In this document: positions 1-47,067 of the stretch, one piece after another | Layout of the letters: every line of letters begins with the position of its first letter | How positions within the stretch are numbered: the stretch's first letter is position 1 | From: a virus | DNA: 47,067 nt | IMG/VR virus record: IMGVR_UViG_3300027906_000027 | Span: 1 to 47,067 of that record | Direction: 5' to 3' (one strand) | Notes under the pieces: model-generated | Database searches by the model: none | What the model saw: the letters and a program-made list of their open reading frames with translations, nothing else | What the model was told of the DNA's origin: nothing | Translations under genes and position numbers: made by a program

Positions 1-789
1 ATATGTCTTGCAATAACTTGCTCTCACCCTTTTTGGTAATTCCTGGGATGTGGTATTTCTCAGTTAATAAGAAAGTTTCTAGCTCATCTATATTCTCATA
101 GTTAGCATCGTTATTAGTTATAGACTCAACAAGCATCTCAGATAGTAGAGTATTAGCTGTTTCTTGTAAGGTACCTGTAAGATCTTTTCCATGAGACATC
201 CTACGAGTAATACTCTTTAGCGTACCAAGAGCATTATCCATCTTAGCACGTAAGATTTCTGATCCACCTTCATCATCAAGAGTTGCTACCGCACCAGTTA
301 GTTCTAACTTTAGAGCATCATATTCTTCTTTAGCTTCATCTCTAATTGCTACATTTAATACTTCCTCTTGGAATTTACCTGTTTCTTGTGTAACAGGTTT
401 AATTAAATGTTTATTAATAACAGCTTGATTGATTCCAGAATCAGCAGAAGCTTCAGCAACAAACTTATCTTCTACATACCTAAGTATTTCATTTTGTGTT
501 TCAGGATCATAAGTCCAAAACTGACCTACTACTATATCTTTACCGTTTTTTTGACCAATAACTTCTTCACTGGTACCAAGTGCAGTAGTACGATATGCAT
601 CCCAACCTTTAGCTTTCTCGTCTAGGTATCCTCTCTTATAACCCCAAGCTATATTAGCCCCCATCCGTCTGAGGTTTAATGCTCTAGCTTTTTCTTCTAA
701 GGTAGCTCGATAAGCTTTCTCATCGAACTCATCCATTCTTTTATTAACGGCAAGTCGTTGCTTCTTAACAGCTTCTTCTATCTTAGCAT
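1..789. repeat. Left copy of the 789-bp overlap between window ends
   Basis: This stretch matches 46279-47067 base for base without gaps, except for about 35 substitutions counted by eye. The substitutions are clustered (about ten at 541-600) and absent from 1-120 and 721-789. It lies wholly inside the gp15-like gene. It looks like the closing overlap of a circular assembly made from two co-occurring strains rather than a packaged terminal repeat. Confidence 0.9.
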
Positions 790-1164: not shown

Positions 1165-2175
1165 TTAAGCTACTACACTTCTAAGGTTTACATCAATCTC
1201 TGTATAATTGACACCAAGATAACCATTGTCATTCTTAACTACAGCATGTGGGGCTGTTTGTAGAAGCTCTTGAGCTAAGACTCCTTGGAATCTATTAGAT
1301 TTAGGTTCTCCTTTATAGTTCCATTCATAGATACGGTGACCATCTGGGGATTTACTTATATAAGTGATGTTTTCTTTTAGTGCTATATCACTTGCTGGTG
1401 CTCCTCCTCCAGCTGGGTTACTAGGTATACCAGTACCATAAGTAGGATCAACACCACCTCCACCAAAGTTAAAAGTACCACCAGCCATGTTATATGCACC
1501 AAGACCAGTAGTAAAACCACTAATAATTGGTCCTAATATAGATGGTTTCTTAGGAGCAGATTGCATTATAGGTTTGATAGGCTCATAAGAGGCTTGTTTG
1601 TGGGTAGCGATACTCTTGGTTTGATTGATAGCGGCTATATCTGCTGAGTATTTATCCAGATCTATGCCATACTGTTCTATAGCATAGGCTCTAGTGACAG
1701 AATCTTGTGATGCATCTATCTGTGCCTGTTCAAATCCAAACTCTCGTTCAGCACCTTGCAGTAATGCTCCTAAACTGTTACCAGCTGGGGCACCACTAGC
1801 TAATACTTCACCTTGAGCTTGTATAGATTTAGCTAAATTCTCTTGAGACTTAAATGCTTGTTCTGCAAGCTTTTCATTAGCAGCTATTTGTGCAGCTGTG
1901 GAAGCTTGATCAGCAGCTATTTGATTGTTTTGCTTGATAGCAGCTAGTTCTGTTTGAGCAGCAGCATCAGCTTCTAATTCTTTCTCGAATACTAGACCTT
2001 TTAATTTATCATTATAGGCAGCAATTGTTAACTCATTGGCATACTTAGTTGTAGCCATATGGTTAGATCTTAATACAGCATCTCGCTGGGCAGCCCATTG
2101 GGCATTTTGTTGTTGTATGCCTGTGATAGCTTGCCCAGCACCTAACGCTATACCAATAGCTACGGGGTTGCACAT
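1165..2175 (-). CDS. gp14-like internal virion protein with C-terminal S74-type chaperone domain
   Basis: This 336-residue protein starts MCNPVAIGIALGAGQAITGIQ. A hydrophobic N-terminus is followed by a long Ala/Gln/Glu-rich helical region (about 20-190) typical of T7 gp14-like core proteins, which enter the outer membrane on ejection. A Gly/Pro linker (about 205-260) leads into residues 262-336, beginning SDIALKENI, which match the start of the intramolecular chaperone/peptidase S74 family. That family folds trimeric fibres and cuts itself off with a Ser-Lys dyad; Ser262 and Lys267 would be the pair here. At about 75 residues the domain is shorter than usual. The start overlaps the gp13-like gene by 16 bases, and the gp15-like gene follows after five. 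Role assignment rests on order and composition; the S74 match is from motif recognition. Confidence 0.78.
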   Translation of the reverse strand: MCNPVAIGIALGAGQAITGIQQQNAQWAAQRDAVLRSNHMATTKYANELTIAAYNDKLKGLVFEKELEADAAAQTELAAIKQNNQIAADQASTAAQIAANEKLAEQAFKSQENLAKSIQAQGEVLASGAPAGNSLGALLQGAEREFGFEQAQIDASQDSVTRAYAIEQYGIDLDKYSADIAAINQTKSIATHKQASYEPIKPIMQSAPKKPSILGPIISGFTTGLGAYNMAGGTFNFGGGGVDPTYGTGIPSNPAGGGAPASDIALKENITYISKSPDGHRIYEWNYKGEPKSNRFQGVLAQELLQTAPHAVVKNDNGYLGVNYTEIDVNLRSVVA

Positions 2176-8343: not shown

Positions 8344-8469
8344 TTATTGCTTGAGTTTTTTGTAAATCTGATTAGCATCTAGTAAAATTTTAATCTTAGT
8401 AGATGGCTTGCTTGCTGACATTCCAGCATTAACTCTTCTGCTGAACTTATCATACATTGGATCAGGCAT
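8344..8469 (-). CDS. Small basic protein (41 aa) downstream of psbA, unknown
   Basis: 41 residues ([20 protein letters not shown]...) starting inside the last codons of psbA (8-base overlap) and ending IYKKLKQ. It is Lys-rich (eight Lys) with no membrane segment. Translational coupling to psbA is suggested by the overlap. No family recognised. It fills the gap that would otherwise follow psbA. Confidence 0.5.
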
Positions 8470-9514
8470 TTAATGTTACCTCTGTAGCCGCTAAATCTAG
8501 CGGGAAATTGTGTGCATTTCTTTCGTGCATTACTTCCATACCTAAGTCGGCACGGTTAAGTACGTCAGCCCATGTAGGGATGGTTCTTCCACCTGCATCA
8601 ACAACGGACTGGTTAAAGTTAAAGCCGTTGAGATTAAAAGCCATAGTGGAGACTCCCATAGCGGTAAGCCATATGCAAGTGACGGGCCAAGCAGCCAAGA
8701 AGAAATGTAAACTACGGCTATTATTAAAGCTAGCATACTGGAATATGAGTCTCCCAAAGTAGCCATGAGCCGCAACAATGTTATACGTTTCTTCCTCTTG
8801 ACCGAATTTATATCCATAGTTCTGAGAATCTAATCCAGTTGTTTCACGGATTAATGATGATGTAACAAGGCTCCCATGCATTGCAGCAAACAAGGCACCT
8901 CCAAACACACCTGCTACTCCGAGCATGTGGAAGGGATGCATTAATATGTTGTGCTCTGCTTGGAAGACAAACATGAAATTAAACGTACCCGATATACCTA
9001 AAGGCATACCATCAGAGAATGAACCCTGACCGAATGGGTAGACTAGAAATACAGCAAATGCCGCTGCAACTGGAGCCGAATATGCTACACATATCCAAGG
9101 TCTCATTCCTAATCTATAACTAAGTTCCCATTGCCGTCCCAGATATGCTGAGATACCGATGAGAAAGTGGAATACAATAAGTTGATATGGTCCTCCGTTA
9201 TATAACCACTCATCGAGGGTTGCAGCTTCCCAGATTGGGTAGAAGTGAAGACCGATTGCGTTGCTTGACGGGACGATAGCCCCTGAGATGATGTTGTTTC
9301 CATAGAGTAAAGAACCAGCGACAGGTTCACGGATACCGTCAATGTCAACTGGAGGAGCTGCGATAAACGCAATAATAAAACATGTTGTTGCGGCTAGTAA
9401 GCAAGGTATCATCAGCACACCGAACCACCCCACGTAGAGGCGGTTGTTTGTGCTTGTTACCCACTCACAAAACCTATCCCAATTAGAGGATTGATTAAGA
9501 GTAAGTGTTGACAT
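8462..9514 (-). CDS. psbA: Photosystem II D1 protein
   Basis: 350 residues with full D1 identity: [20 protein letters not shown] near the N-terminus, five transmembrane helices, [15 protein letters not shown], the [15 protein letters not shown] helix with the chlorophyll/iron-binding His, [19 protein letters not shown] at the QB site, and the oxygen-evolving ligands in [17 protein letters not shown]. The mature C-terminal Ala is followed by a short tail (TEVTLNA), shorter than in host D1, which still leaves a CtpA-type processing site. The N-terminus is about two residues shorter than host forms. The phage copy replaces photodamaged host D1 so electron transport continues during infection. 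The start shares a base with the hli stop. There is no intron or frameshift; the gene looks functional. Confidence 0.99.
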
Positions 9515-38774: not shown

Positions 38775-41700
38775 TTACTTAGGCATGTTCATTAATTGTT
38801 CAATATAATCATACCTACCTGATCCACCATAAGATTTTCTTCTTACTTTTTCAGTGATCTTCTCAGCTAGTTTAGGATTCTCCCTTAAGAGTTTCTGCAT
38901 AGCAATCTTTTTCTCTTGTACAAAAATACGATGCACATCTTGGTAGAAACGTTGTTCAAAGATTTTGTCATCTTTGTTTCTTAAATTTAATTCTTTATAT
39001 CGATTCAAATCTCTACGCCATCTACCGTTTGGTGCCATCAAAGCATTAAGACGGGATCTTAAACTACCCATAGACATATATCTTTGTATTTCTGATTTTT
39101 CAAAAGAATTAAGACGAACACCTTTATATGTATTCAGGATGTTTGGTATGTCAAAACTCATCTCACGTAAACCTTCACGTACAGGATCACCTTCACTCCA
39201 TGTGATAGCAATAGGGCTAAGAGCATTAAACCAAGTCATCAAGGGATTCCCTGGGGGTGGATAGAACTTCTTACCAGATCTATCTTTACTGAGTATATCG
39301 TATTTAGGGGCCATAGCAGATTTAGCTATAGGTAACCTACGTCCAACATATTCCCATAATCCACTAGCTTCTTTCTCATTAGCATCCAGTATATTATTCA
39401 TTTGGTTCATTAAACCACTCCAAGGTAACACTTGAGGTACTAAAAACTTAGCCATAATTCTTTCTATATTTTTAGTAGTACCTTGAGTTGGGTTTAAAAC
39501 TTCACCAATATCTGCTACCCCTGCTAACATAGATTTATCTACAATAACAGAAGTACCCATCCATGTAAGTTTTGCAAACCATTCATCTCTAAGATCTTCC
39601 CCTAGTATATGCTGGTAAGCTGCTAAGTTAGCTGTAGCTGCTAGTATTGTATTAAAAGGTTCTATATCTCTGTATGAGACATAACCATTACCTATTTTAA
39701 ATGAATTAGGTTGAATACCATTAAGCTTCCATAAGTCTCTGGTTTCTTTATCAGGAGGATTATCTCCAGTCATGTTACCAGTGAGAGATGCTATAAAGGC
39801 AAGTGTAATTAAAGAATTACCCATAGCTCTACGGCCTCTTAGAATAGCCCTTTCGTATTCAATATTTTCAGGTTTAATACCATACTGTTTTAGTAGTACA
39901 TCAGGATCACCTTTAACAAGATCTTGCCATTTTTGCTGTAATCTACCTAATTCAGTATGACTAAAGGATAATTCTAAAGCATTAATACCTGTACGAACAA
40001 AGGGGAAGAATGCTCTCATCCCTGTACCTTGTCCAATATTTTCAAGGAAAGCTAAACTACCTGTCAATCTTTTAGTTAATGCAGCTTCATCACCTGCCAT
40101 TTTAGATGCAAGATCACTTACAACATTAACACCATGCCTATCTTTTCTAAAAATAGCATTTTCAAACTCACCTTCAATATTCTTTACAACACCGTCTAAA
40201 TCATTAATATCTAATTTACCTTCATCTACTAACTTTAAAATAGCATTGGTAGCTTCTAATCTTTGATCTAAACGACCAATGATTGTTCTAGCCATAGCAT
40301 CTCCAGATCCCATAAGGACTTGACTATACTGAACCCAAGGTGATGTATTAAAATCAACAACAGCATTTAAAGCAGCATAACTAGCTTTCTGAGCTTCTGA
40401 TCCATACCTTTCTACAAATCTCTCATGTTCCTTCCAAGCTTTTATGTCTTTAGAAAAACTAAAGCGAGTAGCATATGTCTGGTCTTGAGGTATTTTAGCA
40501 GTAGAACCTTTTTGACCAAACCCTAAGGAATCAGAAAGTTGTACTTCTTTTTTGTTAACACCTAAGTCCCAGTTATGTTTAAACATCCTCATACCTTCTG
40601 AATAAGCTTCAGCTAAGGCATTAAGTTGAGAAGTAGCTTGAAGAGCGACTCTTTGGTTTTTAACTCCTGGAAGTTGTGCTCCAAGGAAAGCTTGTACACT
40701 TCTTAGACTAGCAATAAAGTTGGTACCAACAATAGCTTTGAGTGGTGTTTTGAGACTACTTAACATAGAATTATAGTAAGCACTTCTCAGTTCTAACCTA
40801 ACTCTACCTTTAATGTCCACACCATCCATTCTACCGCCTTTCATTACACCACTAAGATACTCTTGAACTTGATCCATTACTCGTACTTTACCGCCTGAAA
40901 GCATGTAAAGTTCTAGTAAATCTGCTCGTTGCTGTGAAGTACCTTCTCTACTAAGACGTTTTAACTCATCGTAGAACTCATTTTGTTGCCTAGCAATTAC
41001 TTCTAGTTCTCGATTAATAGTTTTCCTAATCTCAGCAGGCATTAATCTATTACCAAAGTTCTGCTGTACTAGCTCATTACCTGTCATATAACTGATTTTT
41101 TTTGTTTCAGTCATAGCAAGCTTCATAGTATCAAAGATTTGATCTGTTTGACGTACTAAAGTTGTACCAGATGGTAGTTCCATAGCACCTTGAGCAAGCA
41201 TTTGTACTCGTTTGGCTAAAGATTTGATAACAATTTCAAGGGCTACTTTAGTTGCAGCATTACCTGTTCTAACTATTTCCCCGTCATGTATCCAGAAGAT
41301 AGCATTAGTAGCATCTCCTACATCTTTATCAAAAATACTGCGTAAATTTTTAGCATAGTTTTCTCCTCCATCGTCCAAAGCTTTGTATAACTCAGCTACT
41401 TGGACTAAGACTGATCTTTGAACATCTTTGAAATCCATAGTATTTAATGGATTTTTAGTAAGCTCTTCAGATAAATCTGCTGCTATTTCTCTAATATATT
41501 CAGCTAACTCCTTACTACCTCCAGCCATTCGCCTTATTTGGCTTTCTAAGAATAGCTGTGTAGTACCTGTATCTACACTAGATTTACCTTCTCTAGTAGT
41601 AAGTACTAACTCTCGTATAGCTTTTTTAGATTGTGCCGATAGATTACTATCTAATGGTGGAGTAGCCTTCTCATTAGCATCAAACTTATCTGGATTACGG

Positions 41701-43742
41701 AAAGGTGAAGGTTTTTTACCAGCATTTTCTAGATCTTTAGCACTAGCACCAGCCTCATCAATCCAAGGATCACCATTAGCATTAGCATTTTCTCTAGCTA
41801 TTGCTTCATAGTTTTCTACTTCATCAGCAATCCTACCGTCAACATCAACACGCTTTAGTTCTATCTGACTTTCAGGGTACCAATAAACACGAACATCATG
41901 CTCTTTAATACCTTTAGCTGTATTGACTTGACCTTTATATTTGATACCACCGTACCCTGCTTCAGCTAATGCATCGTTAATGTCATCAATAAGTTCAGCA
42001 GCATCATTTCTAGGAAATGTACCTTCTTCCTTTATCCTTGCCATTATATCAGCATAACTAGCTGACTCACCTTTAGGCCAGTATCTTTCCCATTGAGCAG
42101 CATCTCCAAATTCCCCGTAAAGTCCTTCAGGGAAATCAGACATATCAATCTCACCTCTGCGTAAGATATTAGCAATAGGATTTCTTGAACCCCATTCCAT
42201 CTTGGCATCAGCATCAAGCCATTTTATTGGATTTGGAGAACGGGTACCATCAGCCATAGGTATACTACCAGTTTCTACTACTTCATAGACAACTCTGTTT
42301 TCACCAGCTTCATCTAATTCATAGACATAACCTCTCTGTCTACCTTCTTTGAAATCATCTGTACTACCATACTTACGAAGACGTTCTTTGGATGAGATAG
42401 ATATATCATCTGATACATAGAATCCATCACCAAATAAGTTTTCATCACTCCATACTACTTCCCCACTCTTTTTAAAAGACTTGTCAATATTTAAGTCTTG
42501 AGATCCTGGGAGTATTCTAGCTTCTTTTGCTGTTTTCTTTTTATATCCTTGAGGCTGCTTACCTTCTTTGAAAGGAGCACCATGATAATAAATTGAATTA
42601 CCACGGGTACTAGATAAGTTACCTTGTCTTAATGAGTTGAGTGTGTTCCAATCATCTTCACCTAAGTTTCTCTTTAACCAATCTTTATAAGGATCAGTAG
42701 AAACACCTACTCCTTCCTCAATTTCCACTCCTTTCATGGAGTTACTAGCTTCATCAGCTTTCTGTATACCCTCTTCTATAGTCTGTGTCATAGTATTTGT
42801 ACCTATGATGTTAGACTCAGATATACTCTTACCTGCTGCTCTAGCTCTTACAGCAGCCCATCTACCACGGGCAAAACCAGCTATCATCCAACCACCTAAG
42901 TTAAAACCAGACCCCGCCATAACGGTTTTAATTCTAGCTACCCAAGGGTTATCTTTATCTGGATCTACTGAGAGTGCTTGAGATAATGGCATCCACGGTG
43001 CAAACTCATTAACCAAGTTTGCCATGTTGGCATACTCTGAGCTTTCCGAAATGAAATCTGCAATAGCACCTTCAGATGCAATCTTGGTACCTTTGGGGAT
43101 GAATTGCATCACCCTAGTACCTAATTTGGTTTTAGCTACACGTAGCTTCCAAGGTAATCTTCCGCTGTTATATGCTAAACCTGCTGGTTTGTGACCAACA
43201 ATACCTTTAATAAAAGATGGATTGTTAGCAGCATGGTGCATGTTTTTCCAAAACTTAGTATTCTTAGCTACCTTGGAGGTTAAACCAATCTTACCTCCGA
43301 CACCACGAGTAGCAGCAGTTAAAGCTACAAACTCAGTAATACCACGGGTAAGTTTACCTAAGCCAGAATTGTTCTCTGGTTCCCATGCATCAGGGATTTC
43401 AAGTGGGTTTTTAATCTCATAGTTTTGATGGAATATGTTTTCTTTATCTTCCATCTTGATGCCGTGTGCTTTATACACACCCCATCTAGTAGTATCATAA
43501 AGACGTTTACTAAATCCACCTACACTTTCAACAGCGTCAACTGCACCGCCCCATAGGGCTTTACCAGTTTCTTCAACTAACTGTTTAGGATTGTCAGGAA
43601 GGAAGCCTTGATCTGCATCTTCAGGCGTACCCTTTGCGGCTTCTGCTGCTTCCTGTCTTTGGGAGTCTGTAAGGGCTTCAGCCTCATCTCCCAGAGCATC
43701 ATAATCAGTTAAATCTAAACCAGTATCGTATAAATCATCCAT
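38775..43742 (-). CDS. gp16-like internal virion protein with embedded ADP-ribosyltransferase-like region
   Basis: 1655 residues, longest gene. The position after the gp15-like gene and the helix-rich C-terminal two thirds fit T7 gp16, an ejected core protein. No lytic transglycosylase domain is seen at the N-terminus, unlike T7. Residues about 378-630 instead look like an ART-type domain of phage polyvalent/ejected proteins: SIYYHGAPFKEG (385), LFGDGFYVSDD (437), EAGYGGIKYKG (594) and VRVYWYPESQIELK (618), matching the yHGt...G-GfYvtd...GYdGi.Y...v..PeqI layout. C-terminal membrane-compatible segments (SLITLAFIASLTGNM) fit channel formation. Enzyme activity is inference. Confidence 0.82.
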   Translation of the reverse strand: MDDLYDTGLDLTDYDALGDEAEALTDSQRQEAAEAAKGTPEDADQGFLPDNPKQLVEETGKALWGGAVDAVESVGGFSKRLYDTTRWGVYKAHGIKMEDKENIFHQNYEIKNPLEIPDAWEPENNSGLGKLTRGITEFVALTAATRGVGGKIGLTSKVAKNTKFWKNMHHAANNPSFIKGIVGHKPAGLAYNSGRLPWKLRVAKTKLGTRVMQFIPKGTKIASEGAIADFISESSEYANMANLVNEFAPWMPLSQALSVDPDKDNPWVARIKTVMAGSGFNLGGWMIAGFARGRWAAVRARAAGKSISESNIIGTNTMTQTIEEGIQKADEASNSMKGVEIEEGVGVSTDPYKDWLKRNLGEDDWNTLNSLRQGNLSSTRGNSIYYHGAPFKEGKQPQGYKKKTAKEARILPGSQDLNIDKSFKKSGEVVWSDENLFGDGFYVSDDISISSKERLRKYGSTDDFKEGRQRGYVYELDEAGENRVVYEVVETGSIPMADGTRSPNPIKWLDADAKMEWGSRNPIANILRRGEIDMSDFPEGLYGEFGDAAQWERYWPKGESASYADIMARIKEEGTFPRNDAAELIDDINDALAEAGYGGIKYKGQVNTAKGIKEHDVRVYWYPESQIELKRVDVDGRIADEVENYEAIARENANANGDPWIDEAGASAKDLENAGKKPSPFRNPDKFDANEKATPPLDSNLSAQSKKAIRELVLTTREGKSSVDTGTTQLFLESQIRRMAGGSKELAEYIREIAADLSEELTKNPLNTMDFKDVQRSVLVQVAELYKALDDGGENYAKNLRSIFDKDVGDATNAIFWIHDGEIVRTGNAATKVALEIVIKSLAKRVQMLAQGAMELPSGTTLVRQTDQIFDTMKLAMTETKKISYMTGNELVQQNFGNRLMPAEIRKTINRELEVIARQQNEFYDELKRLSREGTSQQRADLLELYMLSGGKVRVMDQVQEYLSGVMKGGRMDGVDIKGRVRLELRSAYYNSMLSSLKTPLKAIVGTNFIASLRSVQAFLGAQLPGVKNQRVALQATSQLNALAEAYSEGMRMFKHNWDLGVNKKEVQLSDSLGFGQKGSTAKIPQDQTYATRFSFSKDIKAWKEHERFVERYGSEAQKASYAALNAVVDFNTSPWVQYSQVLMGSGDAMARTIIGRLDQRLEATNAILKLVDEGKLDINDLDGVVKNIEGEFENAIFRKDRHGVNVVSDLASKMAGDEAALTKRLTGSLAFLENIGQGTGMRAFFPFVRTGINALELSFSHTELGRLQQKWQDLVKGDPDVLLKQYGIKPENIEYERAILRGRRAMGNSLITLAFIASLTGNMTGDNPPDKETRDLWKLNGIQPNSFKIGNGYVSYRDIEPFNTILAATANLAAYQHILGEDLRDEWFAKLTWMGTSVIVDKSMLAGVADIGEVLNPTQGTTKNIERIMAKFLVPQVLPWSGLMNQMNNILDANEKEASGLWEYVGRRLPIAKSAMAPKYDILSKDRSGKKFYPPPGNPLMTWFNALSPIAITWSEGDPVREGLREMSFDIPNILNTYKGVRLNSFEKSEIQRYMSMGSLRSRLNALMAPNGRWRRDLNRYKELNLRNKDDKIFEQRFYQDVHRIFVQEKKIAMQKLLRENPKLAEKITEKVRRKSYGGSGRYDYIEQLMNMPK

Positions 43743-43747
43743 TTTAG

Positions 43748-46700
43748 TTAGTTAGGTTTTTGCCATTCAAAATGCCATGCCTCATCATCATCTACACCAA
43801 TAGTCCAATCATTATCAAAAGGTCTAAAGTTATAGTTATCAATATTTTCCATTAACCATGCGTGTAATGCTTCACCTTCTGGTCCGTCTGGTAAATTTAT
43901 ATCTATAGCTGTACCTAAATTATGATAAGACTGCCCTGGTTCTGCTGCTAACTCTGGTTTGCCTTTTTTAATTGCATCTTTTTTAGCTTGAACCTGTTCA
44001 TTATATGTTCTATAACCGCTATTAAGCTGTACTTTATGACCAGCTTTAGTAGCATCATTTATTAAACGTATTAAATCAGGAGCTACATCTTTTCTAATTT
44101 TAAAGTCTCTACCAAAGACTGCCTGTCTTGCTACAGAAGCATTATTATCTAGATTAACAAGAAGATTATCAGGTAGTTGACCTGCTATATTCGTTCCTAA
44201 TTTAATTTCAGAAGCATCTACATCATCAAAAGCAAAATCAATACCTTCAAATTCAGGTTGGTTTGCTAGTAATGCACTGATAACTTGTACACCTGCACCT
44301 CTACTACCCCAAGCAGGGTTGTTTCTAGCTTCTACTAAAAGGTTATTCCACCTTTCTTTACCAAGTATTCTTTCAGCTGCTCTACTAAATGATCTGTTAT
44401 TTCCTGGATCCCATACACGTTCAGTACCTATGTTAGTCGTGATATTAATCATATCTTTAACTTGTTGTACTCTTGCTTGATATGGAGCATATTCAGGATT
44501 GGGTTGTATATCCCTGTTAAGGTTGAAGAAGTCACCTATAAGACCTGTTATAGGAGGTTGTTGTGCTCTTTCAGCACCACCCATCTTACCTTTATCTAAG
44601 AAAGGTGTAGGCTGTTCCATACTTTCAAGCTCAACTAACATAGCATTTAAACCATCTAAGTCAGTAGGTAAATCTCTTGTAACAGGATTAGGATCATCTT
44701 GACGATTAAATCTTCCATCAGCTATTAGTACACTTGTACCACCAATATTAGATAATGGTGCATAATCTCCAGTTATATAGTTTTTAGCAGCTTGGCTAGA
44801 GAATCCTCTGTAAGTAGTATCCCACTCACCCATAGCATCTTCTCCATAAGCCATACCTGTAGCAACCATTCTTAAAGCTACATTCTTATTATCTGTTTCT
44901 TTGTTAGCAATTTCAAGAAGTTTATGAAGTTTAACTTTAGTTACTTTCTCTAAAGCTTTTGGATTATTTAGTAACTCTTCATAAGACATATCATTAAGAC
45001 CAGCTTCTTTAAGTAAAGCGGGGGCTTCATTAACAGTAACTAAAGTCTGCCCGTCATAAGCTAGAGTATTTAAAAGGTTAGAAGTATCAACTATACCTAC
45101 TTCATCATATACTCGTCCTGTAGCTCTAGTGCTTGCATTGCTAGTAATGATTTCTTTGTTTGCAGGTGTAAGGTTTTCTTTTAACTCTTCAACTTTTTGG
45201 ACACTCTCAGGTACTTCAATAGGTTCTACACCTTCATTCAAAGCTGCTTGAAGATTATAGATTTCATAACGATTCCTACCACCTCCATTATAAGAATCTA
45301 AATCAGCTAGTTTCTGAAATATAGGTAGAGGCTCACCGTTAGTTAATTTAAAGTACTCTGGGGGTATATAAGATTTAGTTGATAATAAATCTACCTCTCC
45401 AGATCCAGTGTTTTGTTCTGTTTCAAATGTCTGTTCTAGTATTCTAGTTTTCTGACGTTTCTCTATAGCTTGCTCTGGTTTATTCAAAGGTATATCATTA
45501 AGCTCTTCGTTAGACCAACGTTTAGTACCCTGATCAAATTCGAAAATATCTCTTTGCTCAACACCATTTATAGTACGAGTACTAAATGTACTCTTGTCAT
45601 CATCATGGTCAGCTATAAGAGCTTGTTTTACTATACCAGTAGCAATATTCATTGCTTGTGTTACAGTAAGATTTTTATCATTTCTTATTTGATCTTTAGC
45701 TTCAGCTATAACCCATTTCCTAGCATAATCAACAACCTTCTGTGAACCTACAAGTTCTCTATCGTTTTTACTTAAAGAATTTAAAACCTTTTGATTAATC
45801 AATTCGTCAAACTGTGTATCAAAAGTTTTAGCTAATTCTTTTTCCTTATCTGTTACTAAGAAAGCTTTATCAACAAGCAAACCTTTTTCACGGTACTCAT
45901 CAACAACTTCTTGATTAGGTAATCGACCTGCATTAAGTAGTTGATCAAATGTTATAGTACCTTCTACAGAAGTAGAAAGCAGATTGTCAATCTCTCTTGT
46001 AGTTTGATCTGGAGTATAGTACTTAGGATCTTTTAACTCTTTATCTAAATTGAATAACTGAGTGTGTACTCCTGGGACACCTTCATACTTATCTCTTAAG
46101 GCTTGGCTTTCTGCCATAGCAGTTGAAAGAGGTATCTCACCGCTATAAAATCTGGATATAATATCAGCTTTAGATTTCTTAACAAGACTTAAATCAGACT
46201 CATCTTTTTCTTTTAGCTTCGCATTATAAGCTTTCATTGCCTTACCTATAAGCACTTCAGTATTAAACTCTGAAGGCCATATGTCTTGCAATAACTTGCT
46301 CTCACCCTTTTTGGTAATTCCTGGGATGTGGTATTTCTCAGTTAATAAGAAAGTTTCTAGCTCATCTATATTCTCATAGTTAGCATCGTTATTAGTTATA
46401 GACTCGACAAGCATCTCAGATAGTAGAGTGTTAGCTGTTTCTTGTAAGGTACCTGTAAGATCTTTTCCATGAGACATCCTACGAGTAATACTCTTTAGCG
46501 TACCAAGAGCATTATCCATCTTCTCACGTAAGATTTCTGTTCCACCTTTCTCATCAAGAGTTGCTACCGAACCAGTTATTTCTAACTTTAAAGCATCATA
46601 CTCTTCTTTAGCTTCATCTCTAATAGCTACATTTAATACTTCCTCTTGGAATTTACCTGTTTCTTTTGTAACAGGTTTGATTAAATGTTTATTAATAACA

Positions 46701-47067
46701 GCTTGGTTAATCCCAGATTCAGCAGTAGCTTCAGCAACAAACTTATCTTCTACATACCTCAGTATTTCATTTTGTGTTTCAGGATCATAAGTCCAAAACT
46801 GACCTACTACTATTTCTTTACCATTCTTTTCACCAATAACTTCGTCACTGGTACCAAGCATGGTAGTACGGTATGCGTTCCAACCTTTAGCTTTTTCGTC
46901 TAGGTATCCTCTCTTATAACCCCAAGCTATATTAGCCCCCATACGCCTGAGGTTTAATGCTCTAGCTTTTTCTTCTAAGGTAGCTCGATAAGCTTTCTCA
47001 TCGAACTCATCCATTCTTTTATTAACGGCAAGTCGTTGCTTCTTAACAGCTTCTTCTATCTTAGCAT
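43748..47067 (-). CDS. gp15-like internal virion protein, C-terminal part, with M15 peptidase domain
   Basis: This frame is open at the right edge and ends at 43748. It is the continuation of the gene at 1-1159; the full protein is 1229 residues. Most is helical and unrecognised. The last 94 residues form a VanY/M15 D-Ala-D-Ala carboxypeptidase-type domain: SGYRTYNEQVQAKK, SYHNLGTAIDI (H-x6-D zinc ligands), DDDEAWHFEWQKPN (ExxH, catalytic Glu and third ligand). Such a domain would cut peptidoglycan peptide crosslinks while the core proteins build a channel through the envelope. It follows six bases before the gp16-like gene. Domain call is strong; timing of use is inferred. Confidence 0.9.
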   Translation of the reverse strand, partial: AKIEEAVKKQRLAVNKRMDEFDEKAYRATLEEKARALNLRRMGANIAWGYKRGYLDEKAKGWNAYRTTMLGTSDEVIGEKNGKEIVVGQFWTYDPETQNEILRYVEDKFVAEATAESGINQAVINKHLIKPVTKETGKFQEEVLNVAIRDEAKEEYDALKLEITGSVATLDEKGGTEILREKMDNALGTLKSITRRMSHGKDLTGTLQETANTLLSEMLVESITNNDANYENIDELETFLLTEKYHIPGITKKGESKLLQDIWPSEFNTEVLIGKAMKAYNAKLKEKDESDLSLVKKSKADIISRFYSGEIPLSTAMAESQALRDKYEGVPGVHTQLFNLDKELKDPKYYTPDQTTREIDNLLSTSVEGTITFDQLLNAGRLPNQEVVDEYREKGLLVDKAFLVTDKEKELAKTFDTQFDELINQKVLNSLSKNDRELVGSQKVVDYARKWVIAEAKDQIRNDKNLTVTQAMNIATGIVKQALIADHDDDKSTFSTRTINGVEQRDIFEFDQGTKRWSNEELNDIPLNKPEQAIEKRQKTRILEQTFETEQNTGSGEVDLLSTKSYIPPEYFKLTNGEPLPIFQKLADLDSYNGGGRNRYEIYNLQAALNEGVEPIEVPESVQKVEELKENLTPANKEIITSNASTRATGRVYDEVGIVDTSNLLNTLAYDGQTLVTVNEAPALLKEAGLNDMSYEELLNNPKALEKVTKVKLHKLLEIANKETDNKNVALRMVATGMAYGEDAMGEWDTTYRGFSSQAAKNYITGDYAPLSNIGGTSVLIADGRFNRQDDPNPVTRDLPTDLDGLNAMLVELESMEQPTPFLDKGKMGGAERAQQPPITGLIGDFFNLNRDIQPNPEYAPYQARVQQVKDMINITTNIGTERVWDPGNNRSFSRAAERILGKERWNNLLVEARNNPAWGSRGAGVQVISALLANQPEFEGIDFAFDDVDASEIKLGTNIAGQLPDNLLVNLDNNASVARQAVFGRDFKIRKDVAPDLIRLINDATKAGHKVQLNSGYRTYNEQVQAKKDAIKKGKPELAAEPGQSYHNLGTAIDINLPDGPEGEALHAWLMENIDNYNFRPFDNDWTIGVDDDEAWHFEWQKPN
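46279..47067. repeat. Right copy of the 789-bp overlap between window ends
   Basis: Corresponds to 1-789. The first 120 and last about 70 bases are identical; the middle has the counted substitutions. Both copies keep the gp15-like frame open, so both are functional alleles. Confidence 0.9.

What the first reader, a model, noticed from the sequence alone, without database searches (positions are those of the whole stretch)
38775..43742. ADP-ribosyltransferase-like region inside an ejected gp16-like virion protein
Seen: residues about 378-630 of the 1655-residue protein have the ordered motifs SIYYHGAPF, LFGDGFYVSDD, AGYGGIKYKG and VYWYPESQIELK, the layout of ART-type domains found in large polyvalent phage proteins. 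Known: T4 Alt is an ADP-ribosyltransferase injected with DNA that modifies host RNA polymerase; T7 gp16 is ejected but carries a transglycosylase. Inference: this phage may deliver an NAD-dependent host-modifying enzyme as part of its internal core, in place of the T7 enzyme.
Basis: partly seen in the sequence, partly recalled or inferred. Interest (0 to 1): 0.75.

Follow-up and report, generated by a model that had tools for sequence, protein, structure and literature searches.

The report
ADP-ribosyltransferase-like insert in cyanophage ejection protein
An uncultured T7-like cyanobacterial virus carries, inside a protein it probably ejects into the host with its DNA, an extra enzyme-like domain that is a remote relative of the NAD-using ADP-ribosyltransferases other phages pack into their particles, but two of its expected active-site residues are missing, so whether it works as an enzyme is open.

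Summary
The 1655-residue gp16-like protein (window 38775-43742, minus strand) carries the four motifs in the stated order. They lie in a ~257-residue net insert that isolated relatives (9515-10a, P-SSP10, NATL2A-133) lack; twelve further IMG/VR gp16 loci have it. No Pfam or PHROG model detects the window's domain. Three lines still place it in the ART superfamily. (1) Profile comparison with 62 canonical ART-PolyVal-type sequences scores 33.2, against at most 19.9 in 150 column shuffles. (2) The predicted fold of a compact homologue finds diphtheria-toxin and RES-type ART domains at the top of the PDB, and ART-PolyVal-like phage proteins in BFVD. (3) A bridging phage sequence matches PF18760 at E=1.5e-4. 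H387 and Y442 are invariant. The canonical A-x-x-Y tyrosine and the acidic third residue are not kept; a strictly conserved His (H615) sits two residues upstream. Catalysis is plausible but unproven. The insert does not replace the T7 cell-wall enzyme: gp15 carries an M15/VanY peptidase instead. A related clade adds a zincin-type metallopeptidase (HELWH) behind the ART. Best reading: a divergent polyvalent-type effector module carried on the ejected core of marine cyanopodoviruses; target unknown.

The parts
38775..43742 (-). gp16-like internal virion (ejection) protein, 1655 aa, carrier of the insert
   Evidence: phrog_6651 E=9.6e-232; synteny gp14-gp15-gp16-tail fibre as in 9515-10a and P-SSP10
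41823..42608 (-). ART-like insert, residues about 379-640
   Evidence: absent in nearest relatives; profile similarity to ART-PolyVal type; fold search with homologue model
42570..42596 (-). motif I SIYYHGAPF (H387)
   Evidence: HG invariant in 14 sequences; aligns with YHGT of ART-PolyVal
42405..42437 (-). motif II LFGDGFYVSDD (Y442)
   Evidence: N-L-F-G-x-G-F-Y invariant in 14 sequences; aligns with GFYFT of ART-PolyVal; the downstream A-x-x-Y tyrosine is missing
41931..41960 (-). AGYGGIKYKG, counterpart of the GYDG motif of ART-PolyVal
   Evidence: aligned in the full-length profile comparison
41853..41906 (-). motif III KEHDVRVYWYPESQIELK (residues 613-630); invariant H615; V617 lies at the canonical third catalytic position
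43748..47065 (-). gp15-like protein (5' part cut by the record end)
   Evidence: 81% identical to L001 gp15 residues 125-1216
43763..44101 (-). M15/VanY peptidase domain at the gp15 C-terminus: the likely cell-wall enzyme of this core
   Evidence: PF02557 E=4.7e-16

Best explanation
Residues about 379-640 of the gp16-like protein form a divergent ADP-ribosyltransferase-superfamily domain of the kind found in phage polyvalent proteins, inserted between the conserved N-terminal part and the large conserved C-terminal core of the ejection protein. Shown: the insert, its conservation and its relation to ART-PolyVal sequences. Inferred from T7 and P-SSP7: the protein sits in the internal core and leaves the particle before the DNA, so the domain reaches the host at the first moment of infection. 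Inferred from family: it binds NAD+ and transfers ADP-ribose to (or hydrolyses NAD+ near) a host component in a way that favours take-over. H387 and Y442 would hold NAD+. The acidic third residue is missing, so if it is active it should be a mono-ART using another residue (H615 is the candidate) or substrate-assisted catalysis. Estimates: ART fold about 0.88; ejected with the core about 0.85; catalytically active in this phage about 0.5.
For: HH profile score 33.2 (P about 1e-4) against 62 ART-PolyVal-type sequences; column-shuffle maximum 19.9 of 150, other gp16 segments 10-18.6; cyanophage-only rows still 29.0. A full-length alignment puts all motifs in register. AF2 model of compact homologue L026, pLDDT 69.5, pTM 0.72. 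PDB top four hits all ART superfamily: 1dtp prob 0.75, RES toxin chains 0.69 and 0.57, MbcT 0.30. BFVD prob 1.0, E down to 1.2e-5, with ART-PolyVal-like and polyvalent proteins. Bridge L066 matches PF18760 E=1.5e-4 and DUF3990 E=0.003. dN/dS 0.26. Related gp16s add a zincin-type domain, as polyvalent proteins do (PMC5512222).
Against: No Pfam or PHROG hit for the window's domain. The model of the window's own domain is poor (pLDDT 57). PDB hits have E>=0.02 and TM about 0.3-0.35. The A-x-x-Y tyrosine is N/D/E, and the third position is V617 rather than E/D/Q. Ejection and catalysis are not tested for this phage, which is known only as an uncultured record.
Confidence: 0.6

Rival explanations
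1. The domain has the ART fold but has lost catalysis and serves as a binding or structural module of the ejectosome (for example a NAD/ADP-ribose sensor or a host-protein docking domain).
For: Canonical A-x-x-Y tyrosine and acidic third residue absent in all cyanophage gp16 members; the window clade has Y/F where most relatives have D in VYW(D)P; the insert evolves faster than the rest, dN/dS 0.26 versus 0.08-0.18.
Against: H387, Y442 and H615 strictly invariant, as in an active pocket; of 51 canonical ART-PolyVal-type sequences about half also lack E/D/Q/H at the third position.
Confidence: 0.25
2. The domain is an NAD+-consuming enzyme of the RES/NADase kind, or a nucleic-acid-targeting ART, rather than a protein mono-ART.
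For: RES-type toxins (Xre-RES, MbcT) rank 2-4 in the PDB fold search.
Against: Profile similarity is to ART-PolyVal, which are predicted to modify proteins (PMC5512222); fold hits alone do not resolve the subclass.
Confidence: 0.1
3. The motifs are a coincidence and the insert is an unrelated lineage-specific domain.
For: No library model matches the window's domain; low-confidence model for the window sequence.
Against: Shuffle and segment controls, ordered motifs conserved across three phage groups, fold-search hits, bridge sequence L066.
Confidence: 0.07

Closest known systems
ART-PolyVal (PF18760), ART domains of polyvalent proteins, e.g. Roseovarius Plymouth podovirus 1 vRNAP
   Same: HG in strand 1, G-x-Y in strand 2, GY(D/G)G and a V-Y/V-x-P-x-QI strand in the same order; embedded in a giant virion-delivered protein; often beside a zincin peptidase (PMC5512222)
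   Different: carrier is a T7-type gp16 core protein; below the Pfam threshold; A-x-x-Y tyrosine absent; third acidic residue replaced, invariant His two residues upstream
T4 Alt
   Same: ART superfamily, virion-borne, delivered with DNA
   Different: Alt is of the R-S-E type and a separate protein; this is an H-Y type domain inside an ejection protein
T7 gp16
   Same: position in the gp14-gp15-gp16 core cassette; large core protein with a conserved C-terminal region
   Different: no transglycosylase detected; cell-wall enzyme is M15/VanY on gp15; ART-like insert at about 379-640
Internal virion proteins of Tangaroavirus cyanophages (9515-10a, P-SSP10, NATL2A-133)
   Same: about 37% identity over most of the protein
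   Different: lack the ART insert; no M15 domain found in the 9515-10a gp15
Phormidium phage Pf-WMP3 ORF26
   Same: large protein in the core cassette of a cyanobacterial podovirus, with an ART-type domain by fold search and motifs
   Different: ART-like domain lies near the C-terminus and is more like canonical ART-PolyVal (AIYLTK...DTVAIYNPDVIK); not at the same position in the carrier

Membership tests
ADP-ribosyltransferase superfamily | ART split beta-barrel fold | tested here: inconclusive
   compact homologue model: PDB top hits all ART superfamily, prob up to 0.75, E=0.02; BFVD prob 1.0; the window's own model is poor
ADP-ribosyltransferase superfamily | H-Y (or R-S) NAD-binding residues | tested here: met
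   H387 and Y442 invariant in 14 sequences
ART-PolyVal (PF18760) | Pfam curated score | tested here: not met
   no match in the window at E<=10; only the bridge L066 matches, E=1.5e-4, below cut-off
ART-PolyVal (PF18760) | profile similarity over all motifs | tested here: met
   HH score 33.2 vs shuffle maximum 19.9
ART-PolyVal (PF18760) | A-x-x-Y tyrosine after motif II | tested here: not met
   N/D/E in all cyanophage gp16 rows; kept in L052, L062, L066
ART-PolyVal (PF18760) | acidic residue in strand 5 (H-Y-D) | tested here: not met
   V617 at that place in the best alignment (register uncertain by one or two residues); canonical set E14 D5 Q5 H3 and 24 others of 51
T4 Alt type (R-S-E) | R, S and E active-site residues | tested here: not met
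   HG and GFY motifs instead
T7 gp16 type ejection protein | internal virion protein homology and cassette position | tested here: met
   phrog_6651 E=9.6e-232; synteny
T7 gp16 type ejection protein | N-terminal transglycosylase | tested here: not met
   no Pfam lysozyme/SLT hit in the window protein
T7 gp16 type ejection protein | ejected into the host | not testable with these tools
   loss of the core on host attachment is reported for P-SSP7 (PMC8954989), not for this phage

The most novel reading that the evidence does not exclude
T7-like marine cyanophages use gp16 as a carrier for swappable effectors: an ART with a new H-Y-H type active site, alone or with a zincin peptidase, delivered ahead of the genome to modify the cyanobacterial host before any phage gene is expressed.
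Probability: 0.3. Interest if true: 0.72.

Novelty: new variant of a known kind. Interest (0 to 1): 0.52.

Why it matters
Cyanopodoviruses are common viruses of the ocean's main photosynthesisers, and how they seize the host before making their own RNA polymerase is poorly known. An effector carried on the ejected core would be the earliest possible step and is testable with one purified domain. It also extends polyvalent-type effectors from N4-like virion RNA polymerases and conjugative elements to the T7-type ejectosome, and shows that the core proteins are mosaic carriers of enzymes.

Tried and rejected
Pfam, PHROG and PDB sequence searches of the domain gave nothing. Erwinia phage pEa_SNUABM_6 hit (E=0.1) inspected: no ART motifs. 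GenBank phages hold no relative of the insert at useful E. Pattern hits L056, L063, L064 are short out-of-context frames. First structure prediction on the window sequence was too poor to interpret alone; repeated on compact homologue L026. Hydropathy of gp16 gives no clear transmembrane segment before the insert (maximum 1.16 in the whole protein), so the side of the membrane on which the domain ends cannot be told. I first took the D in VYWDP of relatives as the catalytic acid, then dropped it: it is Y/F/T/S/E in others and not the aligned position.

Full report
1. Observation. The gene lies on the minus strand at 38775-43742 and encodes 1655 aa. It matches the PHROG family of internal virion proteins with E=9.6e-232 over nearly its whole length. 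Its neighbours are a gp15-like protein upstream and a tail-fibre protein downstream, as in 9515-10a and P-SSP10. The record is an IMG/VR virus of 47,067 bases. Its two ends overlap within gp15 by about 790 bp with differences, so it is close to a complete, circularly permuted genome. It has a T7-type RNA polymerase and psbA: a cyanopodovirus.

2. The region is an insert. Window residues 346-690 hold 345 residues; the same stretch has 88 in 9515-10a and P-SSP10, 87 in NATL2A-133 and 52 in P-SSP7. Of 35 gp16 rows examined, 13 carry it (window plus 12 IMG/VR loci on 12 contigs; L025 and L026 are identical). Of these, 4 (window, L017, L019, L018) have the ART-like part alone. Nine (L024-L027, L033, L044-L047) have it followed by a ~200-residue domain with HELWH...DEWFAETMSDE, a zincin signature with weak Pfam matches to zincin families. 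On a tree of the gp16 C-terminal part the 11 long insert-bearing rows need one change, but the branch has weak support (66/0), so one origin is not shown.

3. Is it an ART? No library model hits the window's domain, so I built the case from relatives. (a) Related loci: L001/L017 (91% in this part), L008/L019, L011/L018 and others, then a DNA pattern for NLFG[DN]GFY. The pattern also brought in other long phage proteins: L052/L060/L062, and L066. In 14 sequences HG, NLFGxGFY, Y597 and H615 are invariant. (b) L066 matches PF18760 ART-PolyVal with E=1.5e-4 and DUF3990 with E=0.003, both over the same stretch. (c) I gathered 62 sequences of the canonical ART-PolyVal type, mostly from prokaryote genomes. 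Profile-profile comparison gives score 33.2, P=1e-4; without L066 31.7; cyanophage gp16 rows alone 29.0. The maximum of 150 column shuffles is 19.9, the reversed profile 16.3, and other gp16 segments 10-18.6. The metallopeptidase profile as a control gives 13.1. The extended alignment brings YHG, GFY, GYGG and V-Y-W-x-P-x-x-Q opposite YHGT, GFYFT, GYDG and V-F-x-P-x-Q-I. (d) Structure: the window domain itself modelled poorly (pLDDT 57; weak fold matches). The compact homologue L026 gave pLDDT 69.5 and pTM 0.72. The first four PDB matches out of 350,542 chains are diphtheria toxin catalytic domain, Xre-RES (two chains) and MbcT, all of the ART superfamily; probabilities 0.75, 0.69, 0.57, 0.30; E 0.02-0.21. 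BFVD matches reach E=1.2e-5 and probability 1.0 and include proteins named ART-PolyVal-like, polyvalent, a PARP-like protein of an iridovirus, and Pf-WMP3 ORF26.

4. Active site. H387 and Y442 match the H and Y of H-Y type ARTs. The tyrosine of the canonical A-x-x-Y is N, D or E in every cyanophage gp16 row; L052, L062 and L066 keep it. In the best alignment the third catalytic position falls on V617. In the canonical set that position is E14, D5, Q5, H3 of 51, the rest T, M, V, S and others, so it is loose in the family itself. H615, two residues upstream, is invariant in all 14. The register here is uncertain by one or two residues. The insert evolves under constraint (dN/dS 0.26 to L001; 0.08-0.18 elsewhere in the gene). 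This fits an effector, but also a loosely constrained binding module.

5. Not in place of the T7 enzyme. The window's gp15-like protein ends in an M15/VanY peptidase (E=4.7e-16). Relatives L001, L008 and L011 have it too, and so do L026 and L045 by a model built here. Other relatives carry at the same gp15 end what reads as a lysozyme-like (L024, L027, L033, L044) or an SLT-like stretch (L028, L030), judged by eye. The 9515-10a gp15 has no such hit. So the cell-wall function sits on gp15 and is swapped among phages; the ART-like insert is an addition to gp16. Shifts of enzymes between gp15 and gp16 are known (PMC8954989).

6. How it may work. In T7, gp16 leaves the head, its N-terminus stays in the periplasm and the C-terminus reaches the cytoplasm; the P-SSP7 core disappears after attachment (PMC8954989). 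By inference the insert reaches the cell envelope or cytoplasm before phage transcription. NAD+ is cytoplasmic, so the enzyme reading needs the insert to face the cytoplasm; hydropathy does not settle this. Iyer et al. propose that polyvalent ARTs modify host proteins early, as T4 Alt does, and that fused zincins process the carrier or act on host proteins (PMC5512222). The present case fits that scheme with a new carrier. Full-text searches found no paper on an ART in a cyanophage ejection protein; most subscription papers are not covered.

7. Verdict. Observation confirmed; ART-superfamily assignment likely (about 0.88); enzyme activity open (about 0.5); RNA polymerase as target unsupported. 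A new variant of the polyvalent ART kind, not a categorically new system.

Noticed in passing
L024, L025, L026, L027, L033, L044, L045, L046, L047 (gp16 ORFs): Related gp16 proteins carry a second insert after the ART-like part with HELWH...DEWFAETMSDE, a zincin-type metallopeptidase signature with weak Pfam matches.
   Followed up: partly
window 43763-44101; L001, L008, L011, L026, L045, L024, L027, L028, L030: The gp15 C-terminus is a swap site for cell-wall hydrolases: M15/VanY, a lysozyme-like stretch, an SLT-like stretch, or none, in close relatives.
   Followed up: partly
window 1-788 and 46280-47067: The ends of the record overlap within the gp15 gene with sequence differences, so the genome is probably near complete and circularly permuted although classed as linear; gp15 starts at 1159 (minus) and continues at the high end.
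   Followed up: partly
window 1165-2175 minus: The gp14-like protein has a C-terminal extension (SDIALKENITYIS...VLAQELLQTAP) that looks like an S74-type intramolecular chaperone domain usually found on tail fibres; PHROG hits to tail-fibre families agree.
   Followed up: no
L052, L060, L062: Very long core-type proteins (up to 2218 aa, incomplete) combine a ParB-like stretch, the same ART-like domain, a HEAVH motif and a gp16-like C-terminal part: polyvalent architecture in another podovirus group.
   Followed up: partly
window 8462-9514 minus: psbA (photosystem II D1) auxiliary gene (phrog_182).
   Followed up: no
L085 21550-22140 minus (Pf-WMP3 ORF26): Unannotated ART-PolyVal-like domain near the C-terminus of a core protein of an isolated cyanobacterial podovirus; a culturable system to test the idea.
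   Followed up: partly
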